From: a virus
Length of the DNA: 64,000 nt
Strand: one strand, 5' to 3'
IMG/VR virus record: IMGVR_UViG_3300043399_000877
Coordinates: 1-64,000 of that record
A program made the translations under genes and the position numbers. Below the pieces are notes generated by a model. It saw nothing but the letters and a program-made list of their open reading frames with translations, did not search any database and was not told the origin of the DNA. Positions 5,592 through 39,400 of this stretch are shown here, piece after piece (position 1 is the first letter of the stretch; the number at the start of each line of letters is the position of its first letter).

Positions 5592-6135
5592 TCAATATTT
5601 TATTCGCTTTCTCAGCAAGTTCTTCGATCGGGACCGGCCGGTATCCAACTGCTTCAACACTCACGTTAATGTATCTGCCTTCCGGGCTGGGATTTTGATG
5701 TATATGTCCGTGGACGTTTACCATAAAATTGCCACTGCCCGGGGCACCGGTTTCGTGTTGGCTTTGATGCAGCGGAATATGGCTTAAGTGCAATTTGAAA
5801 TCACGGAACTTACGTTCCAGATAAATGCTCTTAAAAAATCCACCGCTGGCCATAAACTTGATGTCGTCGTGATTTCCAACGATTAAGTTTTTGCTGCCGT
5901 TAAATCGCGGCCAGATGCGTTTAAATTTATCCCTATCACCTATAAAAACGTCTCCGAGGTGATAAACTTTATCACCGGGTTTTACAACGCTGTTCCAGGT
6001 ATCCAGCATAAACTCGTCCATTTGATCTACATTGTCAAATTCCGGACGAACTCGTAAGCCGGTCTTACTATCTACAAAATTCAGTATATTTGCGTGATGT
6101 AAGTGTGTGTCTGATATTACGTAGATATCTCCCAT
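5581..6135 (-). CDS. Calcineurin-like metallophosphoesterase
   Basis: The 184-residue protein carries all motifs of the family: SDTHLHH at residue 8, GDVF near 61, GNHD near 92, a later SHIPLH, and HGHIHQ near 143. It hydrolyses phosphate monoesters or diesters with two metal ions. Its start lies 19 bases inside the 3' end of the P-loop kinase gene, so the two are co-translated. A kinase and a phosphoesterase side by side suggests RNA or nucleotide end processing, but that is inference. Confidence 0.9.
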   Translation of the reverse strand: MGDIYVISDTHLHHANILNFVDSKTGLRVRPEFDNVDQMDEFMLDTWNSVVKPGDKVYHLGDVFIGDRDKFKRIWPRFNGSKNLIVGNHDDIKFMASGGFFKSIYLERKFRDFKLHLSHIPLHQSQHETGAPGSGNFMVNVHGHIHQNPSPEGRYINVSVEAVGYRPVPIEELAEKANKILTTA

Positions 6136-6638
6136 GTTTCCATTCCATACATATTATATTTGACCACACGGTCAAATCCTTCACTGAGAGCCGGTTCCAC
6201 ATAGCTGTCGCACATGCTCTCGATAATGTGTCCCGGGATAGTCTTTCCCGGGCGATTCTCCAGTCGCCACTGCCAGTCACTGATCTGACTGTCACCCTGC
6301 GGCGGTTCAACAACCCAGCACTCGCGACGATATTCGCGAGGGAACCGGTTCAAAATGCTTTCACGCTTGCGAGCGCTGAGATTGGTCTGATCCCAGATAA
6401 CATCTTGACCAGTTTCAATAGCAGTACGAAGGCGACCGTTCATTTCAGTTGTTGCTTTTTTGATGTACTTGCTAAATGCAAAATCATAACTCCAACCCTG
6501 CCCGGCAGCCCATTCTTCAATAAGATTGTCGGTGCTGTAGACAAAAGTGCGGTCTCCACGATCGCGCAGGACAGTGTTCACCAAGGTGCTTTTGCCGGTA
6601 CCGGGAAGACCGACCATAACATAGAGCGTGGGCAACAT
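6117..6638 (-). CDS. P-loop kinase (polynucleotide-kinase-like)
   Basis: The 173-residue protein starts MLPTLYVMVGLPGTGKST, a Walker A motif, and has VIWDQTNLSARKR near residue 95, the DxTN signature of polynucleotide kinase and related AAA-type kinases. It lacks the C-terminal phosphatase domain of T4 Pnk; the neighbouring phosphoesterase may supply that activity. It could phosphorylate 5' ends of RNA or DNA, or a small nucleotide. Confidence 0.82.
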   Translation of the reverse strand: MLPTLYVMVGLPGTGKSTLVNTVLRDRGDRTFVYSTDNLIEEWAAGQGWSYDFAFSKYIKKATTEMNGRLRTAIETGQDVIWDQTNLSARKRESILNRFPREYRRECWVVEPPQGDSQISDWQWRLENRPGKTIPGHIIESMCDSYVEPALSEGFDRVVKYNMYGMETWEIST

Positions 6639-9887: not shown

Positions 9888-10643
9888 TTATCTTTTATTT
9901 ATCAAATCCTCGACATAGCATCTATCAACATAATGATTAACACCAGTATCTACCGTAAAATGTGTCCTCGGTTGGTTCTTCATTATCCATAGCTCGTATG
10001 CATGCCTCTCTGATTCTGCTATTACTTTTGTGGGAGTGTAGCTGTATATATCAGTGGGTTTTGGAAGTTTACGTATGTAATCGTTCCTTGCCCACCATAC
10101 ATTTCCACTTGTTATAGTGTCCCCAGTTTCTTTAGACTGAAGATCGCGAACACAGACAACATCATGATCTACTAGATGCTTTATACATCGAGTCCATTCA
10201 GTTATTGTAAAATGGTCTAATACCTCTCGCCAATTCCACACATTGGTACTGGTACCAGTCATACCTTTGGAATGTGTATATAAAACATATCCATCGTTAT
10301 TTTGGCAGTGTTCATGCAAATAGTCTAACGTCTGTCCTTCGTAAAGATTCTTTTGACTTATGTCCCTGACTTCTAAGACTCTTATAAACGGATATCTGGC
10401 GTTAACGTAGTTGACTACTTTTTCACAAAACGGTATATTATCTCCACCGTTTTCAGGAAAAAATCCACCGCCGTATTCGTCAGTTTCCCACCACATGGGC
10501 ATGCTTACACACAAATTCAAGTCAGCTGCCTCGTGCAATCGTGCTTGTGTTATTAGACGCATTTGCGCATCAAACATCCAGTGCCAGCGTAGTCCGCGGC
10601 TATCTGGCGGAATAAACAAATGGTAAAACAATTCTATTTTCAT
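9888..10643 (-). CDS. Glycosyltransferase-like protein (HSKG family)
   Basis: The 251-residue protein has YVLYTHSKGMTG near residue 120, NWREVLDHFTI soon after, and SGNVWWARNDYIRKL near residue 180. This trio (H-S-K-G, W-R-x-x-L-x-x-F, S-G-N-x-W-W-A) marks a family of putative glycosyltransferases found in marine phages and bacteria. Its stop codon abuts tRNA-Ser(TGA), so tRNA 5' maturation by RNase P would define the mRNA end. Likely substrate: a surface sugar; not shown. Confidence 0.7.
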   Translation of the reverse strand: MKIELFYHLFIPPDSRGLRWHWMFDAQMRLITQARLHEAADLNLCVSMPMWWETDEYGGGFFPENGGDNIPFCEKVVNYVNARYPFIRVLEVRDISQKNLYEGQTLDYLHEHCQNNDGYVLYTHSKGMTGTSTNVWNWREVLDHFTITEWTRCIKHLVDHDVVCVRDLQSKETGDTITSGNVWWARNDYIRKLPKPTDIYSYTPTKVIAESERHAYELWIMKNQPRTHFTVDTGVNHYVDRCYVEDLINKR

Positions 10644-11489: not shown

Positions 11490-11519
11490 ACAATATTTAG
11501 TCGTTTTTGCATAGCTTGA

Positions 11520-12543
11520 GATTACAGCATGCTTCGAGTGCCTTTCTGGAGTACCACCGGCCTTGCGAGCCGTGTTGCCAGTTTATCCACTAAAGCCAGT
11601 TACGGTCATTCAGTATCACTCATGGTCGCCTTGTTGAGGAGTGGCATTTCTCCTGTCGCACGTTGCTATTCGTCCATCAATCCTTCGCCTGCCTTGCGAG
11701 CAGTTCACTTCCGCTAAGAAGTTACGCTATCTTTCCGAACAACTACATCAGCCTTGCGAGCATCCGTAGACCACATTCTCTTTCGAGTGTGGTATTAGAC
11801 CACTTTCACAACGTACCGGGACAGTCTTTCGCTTTTGAGTCAATAGTAGGACTTGAACCTACAGTCGACGGTTCCATAAAACCGTTGCATTACCATTATG
11901 CAATATTGCGAACCTACTTCGATGTGCTGTCCCAGTTGCACCATGTCTTGTTAGACACAGTATACAACACACCGACTGTCTTTCAGCTTGCGGCTTACTC
12001 AACCTTACTTCACGAGTCCGGGGCCTAACCCTTCTTCGCTTGTAATGCTACCTAGCCTTTGCTTGCGGGCTCAGACAGTGTAGCTACCTGTTGATATTCA
12101 GCACTCGTTAGTTTGGCTGAAAGCTGTTCGGGCGCCAACCCTCTTACCACTCACCGACTGGCTCTGTGGCTATCCTTTCGGACAACTCTCCTAACTTAAT
12201 GCCTACCGCCATTCTACTGACGGGACTTGCTTTCGCGTCATTGCGAGTCAAGTCTAATCCAGGCTTGTATGAACGAACCATTGCTGGTGCCAGTTTATAG
12301 GAAACCTGGCCTTGGGTGTGTTACCACACTTATTCTAGTGACGTCATACCGCCAATCTTTAACACAAAGCCCACGTTTCACAACGTTAACTTTGCGAGTC
12401 TCTGTTTTTAACTGTACCCCAAAACGTTGCCAATTGACTGGCTGGTTATACCTTGTTGGGTAGGATACGGATAAACTCCGTTTTTTGCCACATACAGTTA
12501 AAAACAGAGCGTTTACTCTGTTTGCTAAATTTTCAAAGAGCGT
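11520..12543 (-). ncRNA. Large ornate non-coding RNA (about 1 kb; GOLLD/ROOL-like class)
   Basis: No minus-strand gene fits in over 1 kb, yet the sequence is full of designed structure. A 17-bp perfect helix joins 12493-12509 to 12400-12416. Many GNRA-capped hairpins occur: CTCGCAAG recurs at least five times, two copies sitting on stems that covary (CGGC/GCCG and CTGC/GCAG), and GAAA loops appear in CTCGAAAGAG and TCCGAAAGGA. A tRNA-like element is embedded in the 3' half and clasped by a GGGACAG/CTGTCCC helix. It is headed by tandem promoters, a boxB-like hairpin and boxA. Size, tetraloops, phage tRNA-cluster context and an internal tRNA-like insert match the GOLLD class of giant phage RNAs, but I cannot align it to the consensus; it may be a new family. 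Confidence 0.72.
11838..11912 (-). ncRNA. tRNA-like element inside the large RNA (8-base anticodon loop)
   Basis: A canonical T-arm GTAGG-TTCAAGT-CCTAC, a D-arm GCAT...ATGC and an anticodon-like stem ACGGT/ACCGT are present. The anticodon loop is TTTATGGA, eight bases instead of seven, and the acceptor pairs at only five positions (CAATA/TATTG). No CCA. It is probably a structural insert rather than a working tRNA. Confidence 0.5.
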
Positions 12544-12557
12544 GTAACTACTGTTAC
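12526..12557 (-). promoter_or_regulatory. boxB-like hairpin plus boxA antitermination signal (unit 1)
   Basis: In transcript order GTAAC-AGTA-GTTAC forms a perfect 5-bp hairpin, then after AC comes GCTCTTTGAAAATTTA, close to the bacterial rRNA boxA (TGCTCTTTAACA). The same pair occurs at 21588-21615. In rRNA operons boxA recruits NusB/NusE and protects untranslated RNA from Rho. Here it precedes the 1-kb RNA and tRNAs. Confidence 0.72.
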
Positions 12558-12568
12558 GTTATGTTGTT

Positions 12569-12596
12569 AATATAGCAGCTAGTGCAGCAATGTCAA
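12569..12596 (-). promoter_or_regulatory. Sigma70 promoter, proximal, of stable-RNA unit 1
   Basis: TTGACA, 16 bases, TATATT, then AACAACATAACG, on the minus strand. The bases from -10 onward are shared with the proximal promoter at 21637. Confidence 0.82.
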
Positions 12597-12754
12597 CAAC
12601 TATTTTGGTCTTGTTGCGGACTGTGTTTTTCTTTGCACAAAAATGTAAGGAACAGTCTTTGCAACGTCGTTTTAGTATACCGCGCAGTGTGTTTTTTCAT
12701 CCAAAGAAAGTATTTTAAGGAACACTGTTTGCGGCGTCGTTTTGTCGTGTTGTT

Positions 12755-12782
12755 AATATAGCAGCTCTTGCAAGTTTGTCAA
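12755..12782 (-). promoter_or_regulatory. Sigma70 promoter, distal, of stable-RNA unit 1
   Basis: TTGACA, 16 bases, TATATT followed by AACAACACGAC. It stands about 185 bases upstream of the proximal promoter, like P1/P2 of rRNA operons. A weaker TATACT near 12674-12679 may be a third start. Confidence 0.8.
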
Positions 12783-12792
12783 CAACTAAATT

Positions 12793-12873
12793 GGTACACA
12801 CATCGTCTGCAGAATTGAACTGCGATCAGTCCCTATAGGACTAGCACGACCTTTGTGCTATGAACGATGTGCG
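12793..12873 (-). ncRNA. tRNA-like element with encoded CCA
   Basis: GCACATC can pair with GATGTGT, followed by A and CCA, and a GTTCAATTC T-loop is present. However the D-arm is over-long, the anticodon stem (AGTCC/GGACT) leaves a five-base loop, and the T-stem has a C-A mismatch. It is a degenerate tRNA or a tRNA-like processing signal upstream of the promoters. Confidence 0.45.
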
Positions 12874-12951
12874 TATAATTTAACTTGCGGCGTGTGTTTT
12901 GCTGATTTAAAGGTCAATTATTAAGGAACACGCTATGCAAGTATTGTGTAA

Positions 12952-13013
12952 CCGGGCCGCGGATTGTGAGTTTTTTCCAAATAAAAATATAAGGAACAAT
13001 CTGTGCGGCCCGG
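12952..13013 (-). other. Long hairpin after the gene at 13021
   Basis: CCGGGCCGC at 12952-12960 pairs perfectly with 13005-13013, with further GATTGT/ACAATC pairing inside. There is no T-run, so it looks more like an RNase III or mRNA 3'-end structure than a classic terminator. Confidence 0.55.
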
Positions 13014-13020
13014 TATTCTG

Positions 13021-14757
13021 TTAGTTCAGCAGCAGGTTTTCCAACCGGTCGTAGCTGAAGCTGCCGTAGCTGAGATCGTGATCGTATTCTACACCGTCTG
13101 CGCGATCCAAGTCGTAGCTGATGCCGGCGGCATCCAACAGTTGGCTCACAGTCCAGAAACGGCTGGTACCACGAGCAACAACAGCAGTTGACTTGTTGTC
13201 CACACTCCAACGGTTATCGTTGAGACGACCCTGGTAGACAGTGAAGGTGTTGTTGTTGACAAAACCGATCACATTACCGCGGCTATCCAGCGAACCCTTT
13301 TCGCGAATTACGACGTCCTCAATCCAACGATCCTTGCCGTCACGACCCACGACCAGTTCAAACCCAGCACCGTTGTTACCACTGAAGATGTTAACAAACA
13401 GGCCGTATTCGACACCGGTACTGGTCATGAATTCCATAGCACCGTTGCGAGCGCTGGTCATATCACCACTGAAGGTAACCGGATTGCTCTTGCTGTAACC
13501 ACTCCATGCACCCCAACCAGTACGATGACCGCTGCGGTCAATAGTGCTGAGATCGAGGTCATGTGCGCCCCAGTCGTCTTGCCAGTAAACACCGGCGCTG
13601 ATACGTCCACCACTCACGGTGATGTTGGTACCGTAGGGCAGGTTACCCAGTGCTTGCTTGCGGCTGATCGGAAGACCGTAATCAACAGTGCTATCCAGCA
13701 AAATACGCTTGCCCTGAAGACCAGCAAGATCGCGGCGGAGGCTAGCAACAATCATGTCACGGACACGATTCAGTCCAGCAGTATCACGAACCGCGCGGCC
13801 TGTTTCAAGATGCACTTTACCGTTGCGAACAATAAATGCGTCGGTATCCTGACCGGTGTGCTTGTACTCGATCAAGTTCAGGATCTTGAAGCGGTCACGA
13901 AGGCTAACCTTCTCAAGCGCCGTCTGGTCTGCACGACCAGCCAGTGCCAGTGCAAGGAACCGCTTGCCGATCGGTTCGTGAACCGGGACATGGTTGCGCT
14001 TGCTGAGTCGGGTGATACGGTTAATCACGTTACGATTGACAGCTCGCTTTGCAGCAAGGATCAACGGCTTGTGGCGGTTGAACACCTGTGCCAGCGGCAT
14101 TTCGTGTGCTTCTAGAAACTTGGTAGTAATCTGGCTGCAAACTTTGATGCTGTCAATAACCTGACGGCTCTTGATCAGCAGGGTTTTTCCGGTTGCAACC
14201 TTCACCATATAACGAACAGCGTCGTCACCGTTGTTGAAACGGTCGCGATTGGGATTGAACAGTTCAACCCGCAGTTCGTTATTACGAATCTGGTTTACAT
14301 CGTAGTCGATGTTGAAGTCCTGGATGATCTGACGAACAAGATCAGAATCTTTAACCGGAGCATTTGCATAAATCAGTGCGCGAACACGATCAGCAAGTTG
14401 CTCAACAGTGATACCCTGAACATAGGTCATAACCATAACCTGGCCTTCTTCAACTTCCAGGTCAAACAGGCCCGGACGATTGAGACCGTAAACTTCCACG
14501 TAGTGGAGCAGTTGCTTGGTCACCAGCTGAACAAGGCTGGCAGTATCACGCTCAACACGCCCGAAAAGGGTGCGAATAGCGAGCGGACTGCGGGTTGCCA
14601 TCAACACAGCCCTATGAACCGAGTTGGGTTCAAAGTCGGTGACAACAGCCAGTTTTTCAACCAACGAAGTGTTAACCACGCCGGTCGTCGCTCCGGGTTC
14701 TACAACCAGAGCATTGAACAGTTTAAGAACGTTTGCTTGTGCAGTCTGATTGTACAT
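13021..14757 (-). CDS. Large conserved protein with C-terminal DLDLS beta-domain
   Basis: The 578-residue protein begins MYNQTAQANVLKLFNAL; AAAGGAG lies seven bases before this ATG, so a GTG 21 bases upstream is rejected. Residues about 1-370 are helical and repetitive. Residues about 390-480 hold VYWQDDWGAHDLDLSTID, then VTFSGDMTSARNGAMEF, a pattern seen in the C-terminal domain of the MXAN_6230/SCO0854 group and reminiscent of TerD-type metal-binding beta sandwiches. Large and well expressed (its own strong promoter at 14781), it may bind host components. True function unknown; the domain resemblance is from memory of motifs. Confidence 0.78.
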   Translation of the reverse strand: MYNQTAQANVLKLFNALVVEPGATTGVVNTSLVEKLAVVTDFEPNSVHRAVLMATRSPLAIRTLFGRVERDTASLVQLVTKQLLHYVEVYGLNRPGLFDLEVEEGQVMVMTYVQGITVEQLADRVRALIYANAPVKDSDLVRQIIQDFNIDYDVNQIRNNELRVELFNPNRDRFNNGDDAVRYMVKVATGKTLLIKSRQVIDSIKVCSQITTKFLEAHEMPLAQVFNRHKPLILAAKRAVNRNVINRITRLSKRNHVPVHEPIGKRFLALALAGRADQTALEKVSLRDRFKILNLIEYKHTGQDTDAFIVRNGKVHLETGRAVRDTAGLNRVRDMIVASLRRDLAGLQGKRILLDSTVDYGLPISRKQALGNLPYGTNITVSGGRISAGVYWQDDWGAHDLDLSTIDRSGHRTGWGAWSGYSKSNPVTFSGDMTSARNGAMEFMTSTGVEYGLFVNIFSGNNGAGFELVVGRDGKDRWIEDVVIREKGSLDSRGNVIGFVNNNTFTVYQGRLNDNRWSVDNKSTAVVARGTSRFWTVSQLLDAAGISYDLDRADGVEYDHDLSYGSFSYDRLENLLLN

Positions 14758-14780
14758 CGTTGTCTCCTTTGTATGCACAC

Positions 14781-14831: not shown

Positions 14832-15227
14832 TTAGTCTTTATGGTGTTGCCAAAGTTTGTCTGAACCACCTAGGTGACCCCAGTCAGAGTCGACAACCAT
14901 TTTTGAACTAATACCGCCGCGCGGGCGGAAAGTAATTTCAAGACGAATACGAAATGGATCGTAGGCTTCCATCAAATGCTTATACATCACGTCTGTAGCC
15001 CTCTCGTATGAAATTACGGTATCTCGATATTGTATCAGATACTCTTTGAGAGATTTTAGTTCAATTGTTTTTTCTTTACCATGAAACCAAATCTTGATAT
15101 GTCCAAAGTCTGGTTGGTTTTTCACCCCAAGAAATGTAAATTCCGGAATATCAATCTGTTGTTCATATCCAGCGGCAGCATTTGGTAAAGATTTTAGTGT
15201 ATTTTCAATTGTATTCCAAAGTTTCAT
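14832..15227 (-). CDS. QueF-fold protein lacking the catalytic cysteine
   Basis: The 131-residue protein matches the T-fold 7-cyano-7-deazaguanine reductase: PEFTFLGVKNQPDFG near residue 28, the QueF signature ELKSLKEYLIQYRD near residue 56, and FRPRGGISSKMVV near residue 100. In active QueF the first motif reads L-C-P and its Cys forms the thioimide with preQ0; here that position is Gly. The His of the F-H-E-D segment also appears replaced by Tyr (SYERATD), while the Asp of QPDF and the following Glu remain. So the fold and perhaps deazapurine binding are kept but nitrile reduction is not expected. It overlaps the upstream stop by one base (TAATG). Confidence 0.82.
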   Translation of the reverse strand: MKLWNTIENTLKSLPNAAAGYEQQIDIPEFTFLGVKNQPDFGHIKIWFHGKEKTIELKSLKEYLIQYRDTVISYERATDVMYKHLMEAYDPFRIRLEITFRPRGGISSKMVVDSDWGHLGGSDKLWQHHKD

Positions 15228-17404: not shown

Positions 17405-17686
17405 TCTTAATGGGTATTAGCACTGGCAGGTTCCCATTTCCTGCATCTCTTCGCTTTCGCTACTTTACCGTTTCTGGTGTGTGAGGCGGGTGTTCTCACC
17501 TCAGTGCCGCAGGGTTTCTGGTTTGCTGTCTCTACTACAAACCCTTTTTCGAATTGGCGACCACTGTTAGCCGCTGTTGCGACCCCCAACACGTTGTCCT
17601 GCCCCATCGGGGGCCTTGGCGTGTTTTTGTATTGGGATTTAGCATCCAAGTATCCAATCGCGACAGTGGGGGCGCATGGATACTGA
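17405..17686 (-). ncRNA. Structured RNA following the suppressor tRNA
   Basis: About 280 bases without a credible gene; an open frame here is just tRNA plus RNA read through. Helices: AGTATCCA at 17649-17656 with TGGATACT at 17676-17683, GCCCC-ATC-GGGGGC near 17603, and GCAGG/CCTGC near 17430. It is one of several such elements between tRNAs. No family recognised. Confidence 0.55.
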
Positions 17687-38689: not shown

Positions 38690-39145
38690 TTCAGAGTGGT
38701 GCGTTTTGTATGTCCACTATTCGAATCCTGTCGGTGCAGAACCGATTATATCTGCACAAGACTACATTCCCAGCCTCTCAGACTATGTCATCGATTTTTG
38801 CCGTCTGTAAGTAAGTGCAACGGTTCTGTTGCTAGGTCCGTTGCCAACCCCCGGTCGCTTATTAGGCGGCCATTGCCATTTCTGGCGCTGCGTTAATATT
38901 TGCAGTTATCATTTTCTTCGCGGTAACGGCGCTTAGATCCCGGTGACTCCATCCTGCCTAGTTCGTACATCGATCCTGTTTCGGCCCCATCAAAGATACA
39001 TGCACATACGTCCTACTCCTGCTTCCAGCGTGTCGCTATCAACATAGGTTTTCGGAAAATCGCTGTACCTAGTATGACATGTATCTATGGTGGAGCCGTC
39101 GGGTACCGCCCCCGAGTCTGTCCCGTGTTCGGTGAACTTCAACGT
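38690..39145 (-). ncRNA. ssrA: Circularly permuted (two-piece) tmRNA
   Basis: In transcript order the acceptor piece comes first and ends CGGCTCC-A-CCA (39098 to 39088). A spacer whose ends pair perfectly over nine bases (AGATACATG, 38994-39002, with 39078-39086) follows. The coding piece then starts GGGGCCGAAACAGGATCGAT at 38988, as in bacterial tmRNA 5' ends. GGGGCCG pairs with CGGCTCC over seven bases with G3-U70, the alanine identity pair. The tag frame at 38903-38859 reads A-N-I-N-A-A-P-E-M-A-M-A-A then TAA TAA. Hairpins follow (GCAACGG/CCGTTGC and GTGCAG/CTGCAC). This order is that of alphaproteobacterial and cyanobacterial tmRNA. The T-loop next to the acceptor (TCGGG-GGCGGTA-CCCGA) lacks TTC, which is odd. 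Confidence 0.87.
38859..38903 (-). other. tmRNA tag-peptide reading frame
   Basis: Thirteen codons (ANINAAPEMAMAA) followed by two TAA stops. The A-A end fits recognition by ClpXP; the -M-A-A close differs from the common -L-A-A. Confidence 0.85.
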
Positions 39146-39152
39146 CACATGT

Positions 39153-39160
39153 TATTTATA
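39153..39160 (-). promoter_or_regulatory. Late promoter motif before the tmRNA
   Basis: TATAAATA on the minus strand lies about ten bases before the inferred tmRNA precursor, which would place tmRNA among late transcripts. Confidence 0.6.
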
Positions 39161-39163
39161 CAC

Positions 39164-39400
39164 TTATTCTATACTAGCGTCAAGATATTTCTTGTATTCT
39201 TCCAATTTGTCTTTTTCCAAAACCTCGTCAAGGACAATATTAGGGTATTTAAGGTAAGCAAAAGTCTTTTCTCGATCAGTCAGCCAAACCACTTTACCAC
39301 CTGCTACTACAAACTTAGAGAGTAGTTTCCAGTATATATAGCATCGTTTTCGCTTATCATTGCTTGGGGGTTTTGGTATCTGTGCTTGCCAGGGTTTCAT
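39164..39400 (-). CDS. Small hypothetical protein
   Basis: The 78-residue protein begins MKPWQAQIPKPPSNDKRKRC and has a helical acidic end. It overlaps the zinc-ribbon gene by 44 bases. Not recognised. Confidence 0.65.
   Translation of the reverse strand: MKPWQAQIPKPPSNDKRKRCYIYWKLLSKFVVAGGKVVWLTDREKTFAYLKYPNIVLDEVLEKDKLEEYKKYLDASIE

What the first reader, a model, noticed from the sequence alone, without database searches (positions are those of the whole stretch)
11520..12543. A 1-kb ornate non-coding RNA with an embedded tRNA-like insert
Over 1 kb without genes but with a 17-bp perfect helix (12400-12416 with 12493-12509), many GNRA hairpins, a recurring CTCGCAAG element on covarying stems, and a tRNA-like insert held by a GGGACAG/CTGTCCC stem. 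Giant phage RNAs of the GOLLD and ROOL classes are known beside tRNAs, and GOLLD can carry an internal tRNA. This may be a divergent GOLLD or a new class.
Basis: partly seen in the sequence, partly recalled or inferred. Interest (0 to 1): 0.9.

Follow-up and report, generated by a model that had tools for sequence, protein, structure and literature searches.

The report
Phage GOLLD RNA with disarmed tRNA
A very large phage makes a member of a known giant RNA class (GOLLD, which builds hollow RNA cages), and in this branch of the class the part that faces the inside of the cage holds a tRNA whose working end is gone and which relatives swap for other tRNAs.

Summary
The finding is real. Window 11513-11975 (minus strand) matches the Rfam GOLLD model over its full length (187.4 bits, cut-off 150), in a 382-kb virus record. 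GOLLDs with an internal tRNA were already known, so this is not a new class.

What relatives add: (1) Seventy-four distinct linkers hold a tRNA in the same slot, with strong covariation. Nearly all lack a working end: 1 of 74 encodes CCA and 8 of 74 keep a full acceptor stem, against 726 and 641 of 751 free tRNAs on the same contigs. (2) The insert behaves as a swappable cassette: two GOLLDs identical over 630 flanking bases carry different tRNAs, and anticodons change at least 36 times on a 72-row tree. Most inserts (about 54 of 74) have NUU anticodons. (3) Two relatives carry a circularly permuted tRNA with CCA. (4) GOLLD leaders from several phage groups, this one included, carry promoter - hairpin - boxA in the order of rRNA leaders.

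Most likely it is a GOLLD cage RNA holding tRNA bodies in its lumen that cannot be charged. This window's insert has a defective acceptor and an 8-base anticodon loop.

The parts
12569..12596 (-). Predicted promoter: TTGACA (12596-12591), 16-bp spacer, TATATT (12574-12569); start of transcription expected near 12560
   Evidence: 11 of 12 consensus bases. Relatives have a sigma-70-type promoter at the matching place. The start site is inferred.
12544..12557 (-). Leader hairpin GTAAC-AGTA-GTTAC just before boxA (boxB-like position)
   Evidence: 23 of 31 boxA-bearing relatives have a hairpin of at least 5 bp within 32 nt upstream of boxA, with different stem sequences
12527..12541 (-). boxA-like antitermination motif GCTCTTTGAAAATTT
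   Evidence: Motif in 31/63 tRNA-bearing and 41/56 other GOLLD leaders on the sense strand, against 2/63 and 3/56 antisense
12502..12523 (-). AAACAGAG/CTCTGTTT hairpin followed by U run (terminator-like); mutually exclusive with the 17-bp helix
   Evidence: sequence; the same palindrome is listed on the + strand by the terminator scan. Function inferred.
12400..12509 (-). Leader hairpin closed by the 17-bp perfect helix (12493-12509 with 12400-12416)
   Evidence: No sequence match in relatives; L074 and L028 have long leader hairpins of other sequence at this place
11934..12357 (-). Conserved 5' domain and start of the 3' domain, up to the clamp
   Evidence: alignment A2 of 12 relatives; 95.9% of cells paired, 69/105 pairs with compensatory changes, covariation score 0.548 against 0.07-0.08 when slid
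11513..11975 (-). GOLLD 3' domain, Rfam RF02032 positions 1-416
   Evidence: 187.4 bits, gathering 150, E 3.5e-51
11919..11975 (-). First helix of the 3' domain: UCGGUGUGUUG (11975-11965) with CAGCACAUCGA (11929-11919), enclosing a hairpin
   Evidence: Rfam alignment and sequence
11927..11933 (-). Clamp, 5' strand GGGACAG; crosses the first helix, so it is a pseudoknot and is absent from the Rfam structure line
   Evidence: a 7-bp clamp candidate is also found in 51 of 65 GOLLDs without a tRNA, against 1.7 in shuffles
11818..11824 (-). Clamp, 3' strand CTGTCCC
   Evidence: as above; 99.8% of clamp cells paired over 74 sequences
11837..11910 (-). tRNA-like cassette in the linker: D, anticodon and T arms present, lower acceptor pairs only, no CCA, 8-nt anticodon loop (or 6-nt with one more pair)
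11562..11760 (-). Three hairpins with the CTCGCAAG element (11562-11569, 11693-11700, 11753-11760)

Best explanation
A GOLLD RNA of a very large phage, about 1,045 nt from predicted start to 3' end. Shown by sequence and comparison: it has the GOLLD 3' domain, a covarying 5' domain, the clamp helix, and a tRNA body in the variable linker; the tRNA fold is kept by selection while CCA and the upper acceptor pairs are usually lost; relatives swap the whole tRNA while the rest of the RNA stays the same. Inferred from the solved env-38 structure: copies assemble into a hollow cage with the linker inside, so the lumen would be lined with tRNA bodies that cannot be charged. Inferred from the leader: RNA polymerase starts at the promoter at 12596-12569, reads the hairpin plus boxA, and is converted to the Nus-factor antitermination form used for rRNA, so that a long untranslated, highly structured RNA is made and folded completely. 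Most likely role of the cassette: a bait or docking body for proteins or ribosomes that recognise the tRNA elbow and anticodon arm, with the anticodon deciding the target; it is not a supply of tRNA for translation.
For: GOLLD: full-length Rfam match; 5' domain covariation; clamp covariation in tRNA-bearing and other GOLLDs. tRNA body kept: lower acceptor, D, anticodon and T stems 96-98% paired, 17 of their 18 pairs with compensatory changes. Disarmed: full 7-bp acceptor 8/74 and CCA 1/74, against 641/751 and 726/751 for free tRNAs on the same contigs. Exchange: L169 and L280 identical over 300 + 330 nt flanks, inserts 68% identical; L202 and L282 99%/96% flanks, 60% inserts; at least 36 anticodon changes on the tree. 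Inserts are not close copies of free tRNAs on the same contig (mean best identity 0.61). Linker inside the cage: PMC12286853. boxA; hairpin-boxA order as described for rRNA leaders (PMC10250234 abstract); gamma-proteobacterial boxA consensus GYTCTTTAANA (PMC5725501).
Against: No expression, structure or binding data for this RNA. Cage formation is known for one GOLLD (env-38) whose linker is shorter and not resolved. A minority of inserts are irregular or degenerate (L007, L048, L269, L129), which also fits slow decay. boxA matched in only about half of the tRNA-bearing leaders. The search patterns fixed parts of the flanks and the insert length, and ARAGORN favours well-paired free tRNAs, so some contrasts are exaggerated; the CCA contrast does not depend on either. 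Contigs are metagenome assemblies, so a swap could be an assembly chimera, although L169 and L280 come from different metagenomes.
Confidence: 0.5

Rival explanations
1. The insert is a real tRNA gene that travels inside GOLLD and is cut out by RNase P and 3' nucleases, so that GOLLD is a carrier or a co-transcript of tRNAs.
For: GOLLD lies in tRNA arrays. The rare permuted inserts (L087 = L263, L262) have CCA and a perfect 7-bp acceptor. Free phage tRNAs are encoded in the same region.
Against: In the canonical inserts CCA is encoded in 1 of 74, against 97% of free tRNAs on the same contigs, and the three upper acceptor pairs are mostly unpaired. The window insert also has an 8-nt anticodon loop, and the DSS3_MAL1 insert lacks U33. 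Cutting would split the cage RNA. No expression of the pseudo-tRNA inside the mycobacterial GOLLD was detected (PMC6582537).
Confidence: 0.12
2. The insert is a neutral filler: any compact fold serves as spacer in the linker, and tRNA pieces were captured because GOLLD sits among tRNA genes.
For: Only about one GOLLD in five has a tRNA; others have short A/U-rich linkers or remnants (L048, L269, L085, L129). The upper acceptor and CCA decay freely.
Against: The D, anticodon and T arms covary at about 97% paired over very diverged sequences, T-loop TTCRANT is kept, and most inserts have anticodons of one kind, NUU (about 54/74 against 62/825 of free tRNAs). Recent captures would resemble local free tRNAs, and they do not.
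Confidence: 0.22
3. The anticodon loop is a structural contact: UUAA in most loops is self-complementary and could pair loop to loop between two protomers across the cage.
For: 53 of 74 loops are of the form NTNTTAA; symmetric kissing loops hold GOLLD half-shells together (PMC12286853).
Against: About a quarter of loops, including that of the window (TTTATGGA), are not self-complementary. No partner was shown.
Confidence: 0.1

Closest known systems
GOLLD RNA (Rfam RF02032; env-38 structure, Kretsch et al. 2025, PMC12286853)
   Same: Full-length 3' domain, upstream 5' domain, phage genome rich in tRNAs, variable linker in the same position; tRNAs in the linker mentioned there
   Different: Linker carries a full tRNA body with defective acceptor; longer 5' leader with a 17-bp helix; boxA leader not described in the held literature (no paper holds both words)
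GOLLD with pseudo-tRNA in Mycobacterium (PMC6582537)
   Same: A tRNA-like gene predicted inside GOLLD, no separate expression detected
   Different: Chromosomal tRNA cluster, one case; no survey of acceptor, anticodon or exchange
GOLLDs of Phaeobacter phage MD18 and phage DSS3_MAL1
   Same: tRNA annotated as tRNA-Arg lies inside the GOLLD linker
   Different: Annotators listed it as an ordinary tRNA gene; in DSS3_MAL1 the anticodon loop CGTCTAA lacks U33
YrlA, bacterial Y RNA (Rfam RF02553)
   Same: A structured RNA that carries a permuted tRNA mimic (from general knowledge of YrlA); two units of contig L262 match the model at 43.8 and 37.0 bits, below its cut-off of 69
   Different: Not GOLLD; relevant only to the rare permuted inserts, not to the window
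rRNA operon leader (boxB-boxA) and phage nut/put sites
   Same: Promoter, hairpin, then boxA at fixed spacing in GOLLD leaders
   Different: The transcript is a phage non-coding RNA; Nus factor binding not tested

Membership tests
GOLLD (RF02032) | Score above the curated cut-off of the covariance model | tested here: met
   187.4 bits against 150, positions 1-416 of 416, not truncated
GOLLD (RF02032) | Conserved 3' domain preceded by a less conserved structured 5' domain | tested here: met
   5' domain covaries in 12 relatives. Its match to the 5' fold of env-38 was not tested.
GOLLD (RF02032) | Phage or prophage origin, next to tRNA genes | tested here: met
   IMG/VR record of 381,886 bp; 24 ARAGORN calls in the window, 40 tRNA matches in the record
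GOLLD (RF02032) | Length of many members above 800 nt | tested here: inconclusive
   Predicted about 1,045 nt from promoter to 3' end; ends not measured
GOLLD (RF02032) | Assembly into a 14-subunit cage | not testable with these tools
   Needs mass photometry or cryo-EM
ROOL and other giant RNAs | Match to the Rfam model | tested here: not met
   Only GOLLD and tRNA match at E up to 1
Functional tRNA gene (the insert) | 7-bp acceptor stem with encoded CCA, as in the free tRNAs around it | tested here: not met
   Five of the seven acceptor pairs form; no CCA
Functional tRNA gene (the insert) | 7-nt anticodon loop | tested here: not met
   8-nt loop, called as 4-base anticodon TATG
rRNA-type boxA antitermination site | boxA sequence after a promoter-proximal hairpin | tested here: met
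   GCTCTTTGAAA differs at position 8 from the gamma-proteobacterial consensus GYTCTTTAANA
rRNA-type boxA antitermination site | Binding of NusB/S10 and protection from Rho | not testable with these tools
   Experiment needed

The most novel reading that the evidence does not exclude
The GOLLD linker is a swappable payload slot: the phage displays, in the cage lumen, tRNA bodies without acceptor end whose anticodon is exchanged under selection (mostly Asn/Lys NUU). They would act as anticodon-specific bait, for example against host anticodon nucleases or for tRNA-binding factors, and the RNA would be made with the rRNA antitermination machinery.
Probability: 0.2. Interest if true: 0.88.

Novelty: new variant of a known kind. 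Interest (0 to 1): 0.62.

Why it matters
The function of GOLLD cages is unknown. Kretsch et al. suggested that they may enclose phage tRNAs. The data here sharpen that: in the common form the enclosed tRNA cannot be charged, its fold is under strong selection, and the whole tRNA is exchanged between near-identical RNAs. That points to recognition of the tRNA body or anticodon rather than to tRNA supply, and gives direct tests (swap or delete the cassette). The boxA leaders, if they work, would place these giant phage RNAs among the few non-ribosomal transcripts made by the Nus antitermination complex.

Tried and rejected
New RNA class: rejected, full-length Rfam match. ROOL: no match. Protein-coding stretch: no Pfam support above cut-off for its ORFs, and covariation argues for RNA. 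Bacterial prophage homologues of the tRNA-bearing form: the one genome-contig scan gave one chance hit in a coding stretch (L308). More permuted inserts: a dedicated scan found only the three known contigs; its other hits are unrelated sequences. boxA as a pairing partner of the conserved GOLLD loop UUCAAAAGA: disfavoured, because the loop becomes CUAACAAGG in the tRNA-bearing clade while boxA stays. The first strict motif GCTCTTTRA gave few hits; the wider G[CT]TCTTTRA was used after reading the leaders, so it was fitted to the data; the antisense and background controls were run with it afterwards. TROVE/Ro60 protein in the window phage or in six related contigs: none. The 585-aa protein upstream: no Pfam or PHROG family. 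Weinberg 2009 and Morgado 2020 are not held, so prior mention of details there cannot be excluded.

Full report
What is there. The window is the first 64 kb of an IMG/VR virus record of 381,886 bp. On the minus strand, 11513-11975 matches Rfam RF02032 (GOLLD) over positions 1-416 with 187.4 bits against a cut-off of 150. No other Rfam family than GOLLD and tRNA matches the stretch at E up to 1. ORFs in it have no supporting family: the only Pfam hit, PF21971 at 17.8 bits, is below its cut-off of 27.

Anatomy. In the 3' domain the segment UCGGUGUGUUG pairs with CAGCACAUCGA, and the 7 bases GGGACAG that overlap it pair with CUGUCCC on the far side of the linker. This clamp therefore crosses the first helix, which explains why it is absent from the Rfam structure line. 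It is not special to tRNA-bearing RNAs: 51 of 65 GOLLDs without a tRNA have a 7-bp clamp candidate, in many different sequences, against 1.7 in shuffled controls. The tRNA-like element lies in the loop between these strands, which is the variable linker of the class. In the solved env-38 GOLLD, a 14-mer cage, the linker is disordered and points into the lumen (PMC12286853).

The tRNA slot. A pattern for the GOLLD 3' end found 120 or more viral contigs. ARAGORN found a tRNA at the same place, about 395 to 322 nt before the 3' end, in some 15 of them besides the window, and more were seen by eye (L023, L112); this is about one GOLLD in five. A second and third pattern brought the set to 74 distinct linkers with a tRNA body (alignment A1). 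On A1 the clamp, lower acceptor, D, anticodon and T stems are 98.0% paired; 20 of 25 pairs have compensatory changes; the covariation score is 0.653 against 0.07 to 0.11 for slid controls. The search patterns fixed the inner CAG/CTG of the clamp and roughly the insert length, but none of the tRNA arms and none of the outer clamp pairs.

The tRNA is disarmed. In the 74 linkers the four lower acceptor pairs form in 72 or 73, but the three upper ones in only 41, 32 and 35; 8 keep all seven pairs; 1 has a possible CCA. Of 751 free tRNAs scored on the same contigs, 641 have all seven pairs and 726 encode CCA (Fisher p below 1e-39 for both, with the caution that related sequences are not independent and ARAGORN favours well-paired tRNAs). 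The window insert keeps five acceptor pairs, has no CCA and has an 8-nt anticodon loop; the insert of phage DSS3_MAL1, annotated as tRNA-Arg, has G at position 33.

Anticodons and exchange. Most inserts have the loop NTNTTAA, that is anticodons GUU, UUU or CUU (about 54 of 74, against 62 of 825 free tRNAs). Others read CTA, TCA, TTA, TAG, GAT, TGT, TGG, TTC, ATG. On a tree of the 3' domain without the linker, at least 36 anticodon changes are needed over 72 rows. L169 and L280, from different metagenomes, are identical over 300 nt before and 330 nt after the linker, but their inserts are 68% identical; L202 and L282 have 99%/96% identical flanks and 60% identical inserts. Thus whole cassettes are replaced. 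Inserts are not near copies of free tRNAs on the same contig (mean best identity 0.61).

Permuted inserts. In L087 (= L263) and L262 the linker holds T arm, acceptor 3' strand and CCA first, then a spacer of 8-9 nt, then acceptor 5' strand, D arm and anticodon arm. Acceptor strands pair perfectly with different sequences in the two cases, and ARAGORN accepts both when the order is restored. Such an insert is attached through the region of the variable loop, so its CCA end could be freed while it stays tied to GOLLD. L262 also holds two free permuted units that match YrlA, a Y RNA with a tRNA mimic, at 43.8 and 37.0 bits, below the cut-off of 69.

The leader. In relatives of the window a sigma-70-type promoter is followed by a hairpin and then by GCTCTTTGAAAATT or GTTCTTTAAAAATT. 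The motif G[CT]TCTTT[AG]A is on the sense strand of 31 of 63 tRNA-bearing leaders and on the antisense strand of 2, with a background of 0.048 per kb and strand; in 28 of the 31 a promoter ends 24 to 34 nt before it; 23 have a hairpin of at least 5 bp within 32 nt upstream. In GOLLDs without a tRNA, many with other promoter types, it is in 41 of 56 sense and 3 of 56 antisense; a few of these, such as L012 and L045, look like coding or tRNA sequence by chance. The motif was widened after reading the leaders, so it was fitted in part. The order hairpin-boxA is that of rRNA leaders (PMC10250234), and the gamma-proteobacterial boxA consensus is GYTCTTTAANA (PMC5725501). No held paper contains both GOLLD and boxA. 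In the window the parts are promoter 12596-12569, hairpin 12557-12544, boxA 12541-12527, then a terminator-like hairpin that excludes the 17-bp helix. The 17-bp helix belongs to this leader; its sequence is not shared, though L074 and L028 have long hairpins of other sequence at the same place.

The 5' domain. Twelve sequences align from window 12357 to 11934 (A2): 105 consensus pairs, 95.9% of cells paired, 69 pairs with compensatory changes, covariation score 0.548 against 0.07-0.08 slid. The structure was derived from this alignment, so the slid control is favourable to it.

Function. Shown: GOLLD membership by model, a conserved and covarying tRNA body without working end, exchange of cassettes, and a conserved leader motif. 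Inferred: cage formation, lumenal position, antitermination, and the role as bait or docking body. Supply of tRNAs for translation is an unlikely role for canonical inserts; decay of a neutral filler is the main rival. A contact between anticodon loops is possible for the UUAA loops, but not for the window's own.

Place among known things. The window RNA is a GOLLD with an internal tRNA, a form already mentioned in the literature. The loss of the acceptor end, the exchange, the permuted inserts and the boxA leader appear to be new, with the reservation that Weinberg 2009 and Morgado 2020 could not be read here.

Noticed in passing
window 12600-13012, minus strand: Four repeats with the plan 5-bp stem, AxA bulge opposite C, 6-bp stem, loop starting UCCUUA and ending in A-rich sequence; all stems differ in sequence but pair. 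Not found in related contigs. They lie between a 585-aa protein of no known family (13021-14778) and GOLLD.
   Followed up: partly
window 12755-12782, minus strand: A second promoter of the same build (TTGACA-16-TATATT) as the GOLLD promoter, before the last two of these repeats.
   Followed up: no
window 38814-39200, minus strand: Two-piece (permuted) alpha-proteobacterial type tmRNA gene in a phage, 109.6 bits; phage DSS3_MAL1 has tmRNA next to its GOLLD and L087 has one too.
   Followed up: no
window 17418-17509, minus strand: skipping-rope RNA, RF02924, 51.2 bits.
   Followed up: no
L262:4680-4815 and 10412-10550: Two free circularly permuted tRNA-like units (Asp GTC and Phe GAA type) whose anticodon stem is split between positions 29 and 30, closed by a covarying stem; they match YrlA at 43.8 and 37.0 bits, below its cut-off of 69.
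   Followed up: partly
L255:2567-2690, L255:4890-5020, L285:309-438, L262:10552-10668, L247:2259-2328, L297:4900-5035 (minus strand): More units with the same closing stem and flanks (AGGATNN-TTCAGCAA ... NNATCCTGTTA): three with permuted tRNA halves, one with a canonical-order tRNA-like body, two with other contents; probably phage Y RNAs of the YrlA kind. No TROVE/Ro60 gene on these contigs.
   Followed up: partly
window 14835-15227, minus strand: QueF-like protein, 69.2 bits.
   Followed up: no
window 6120-6638, minus strand: Protein matching ATPase and polynucleotide kinase families of phages.
   Followed up: no
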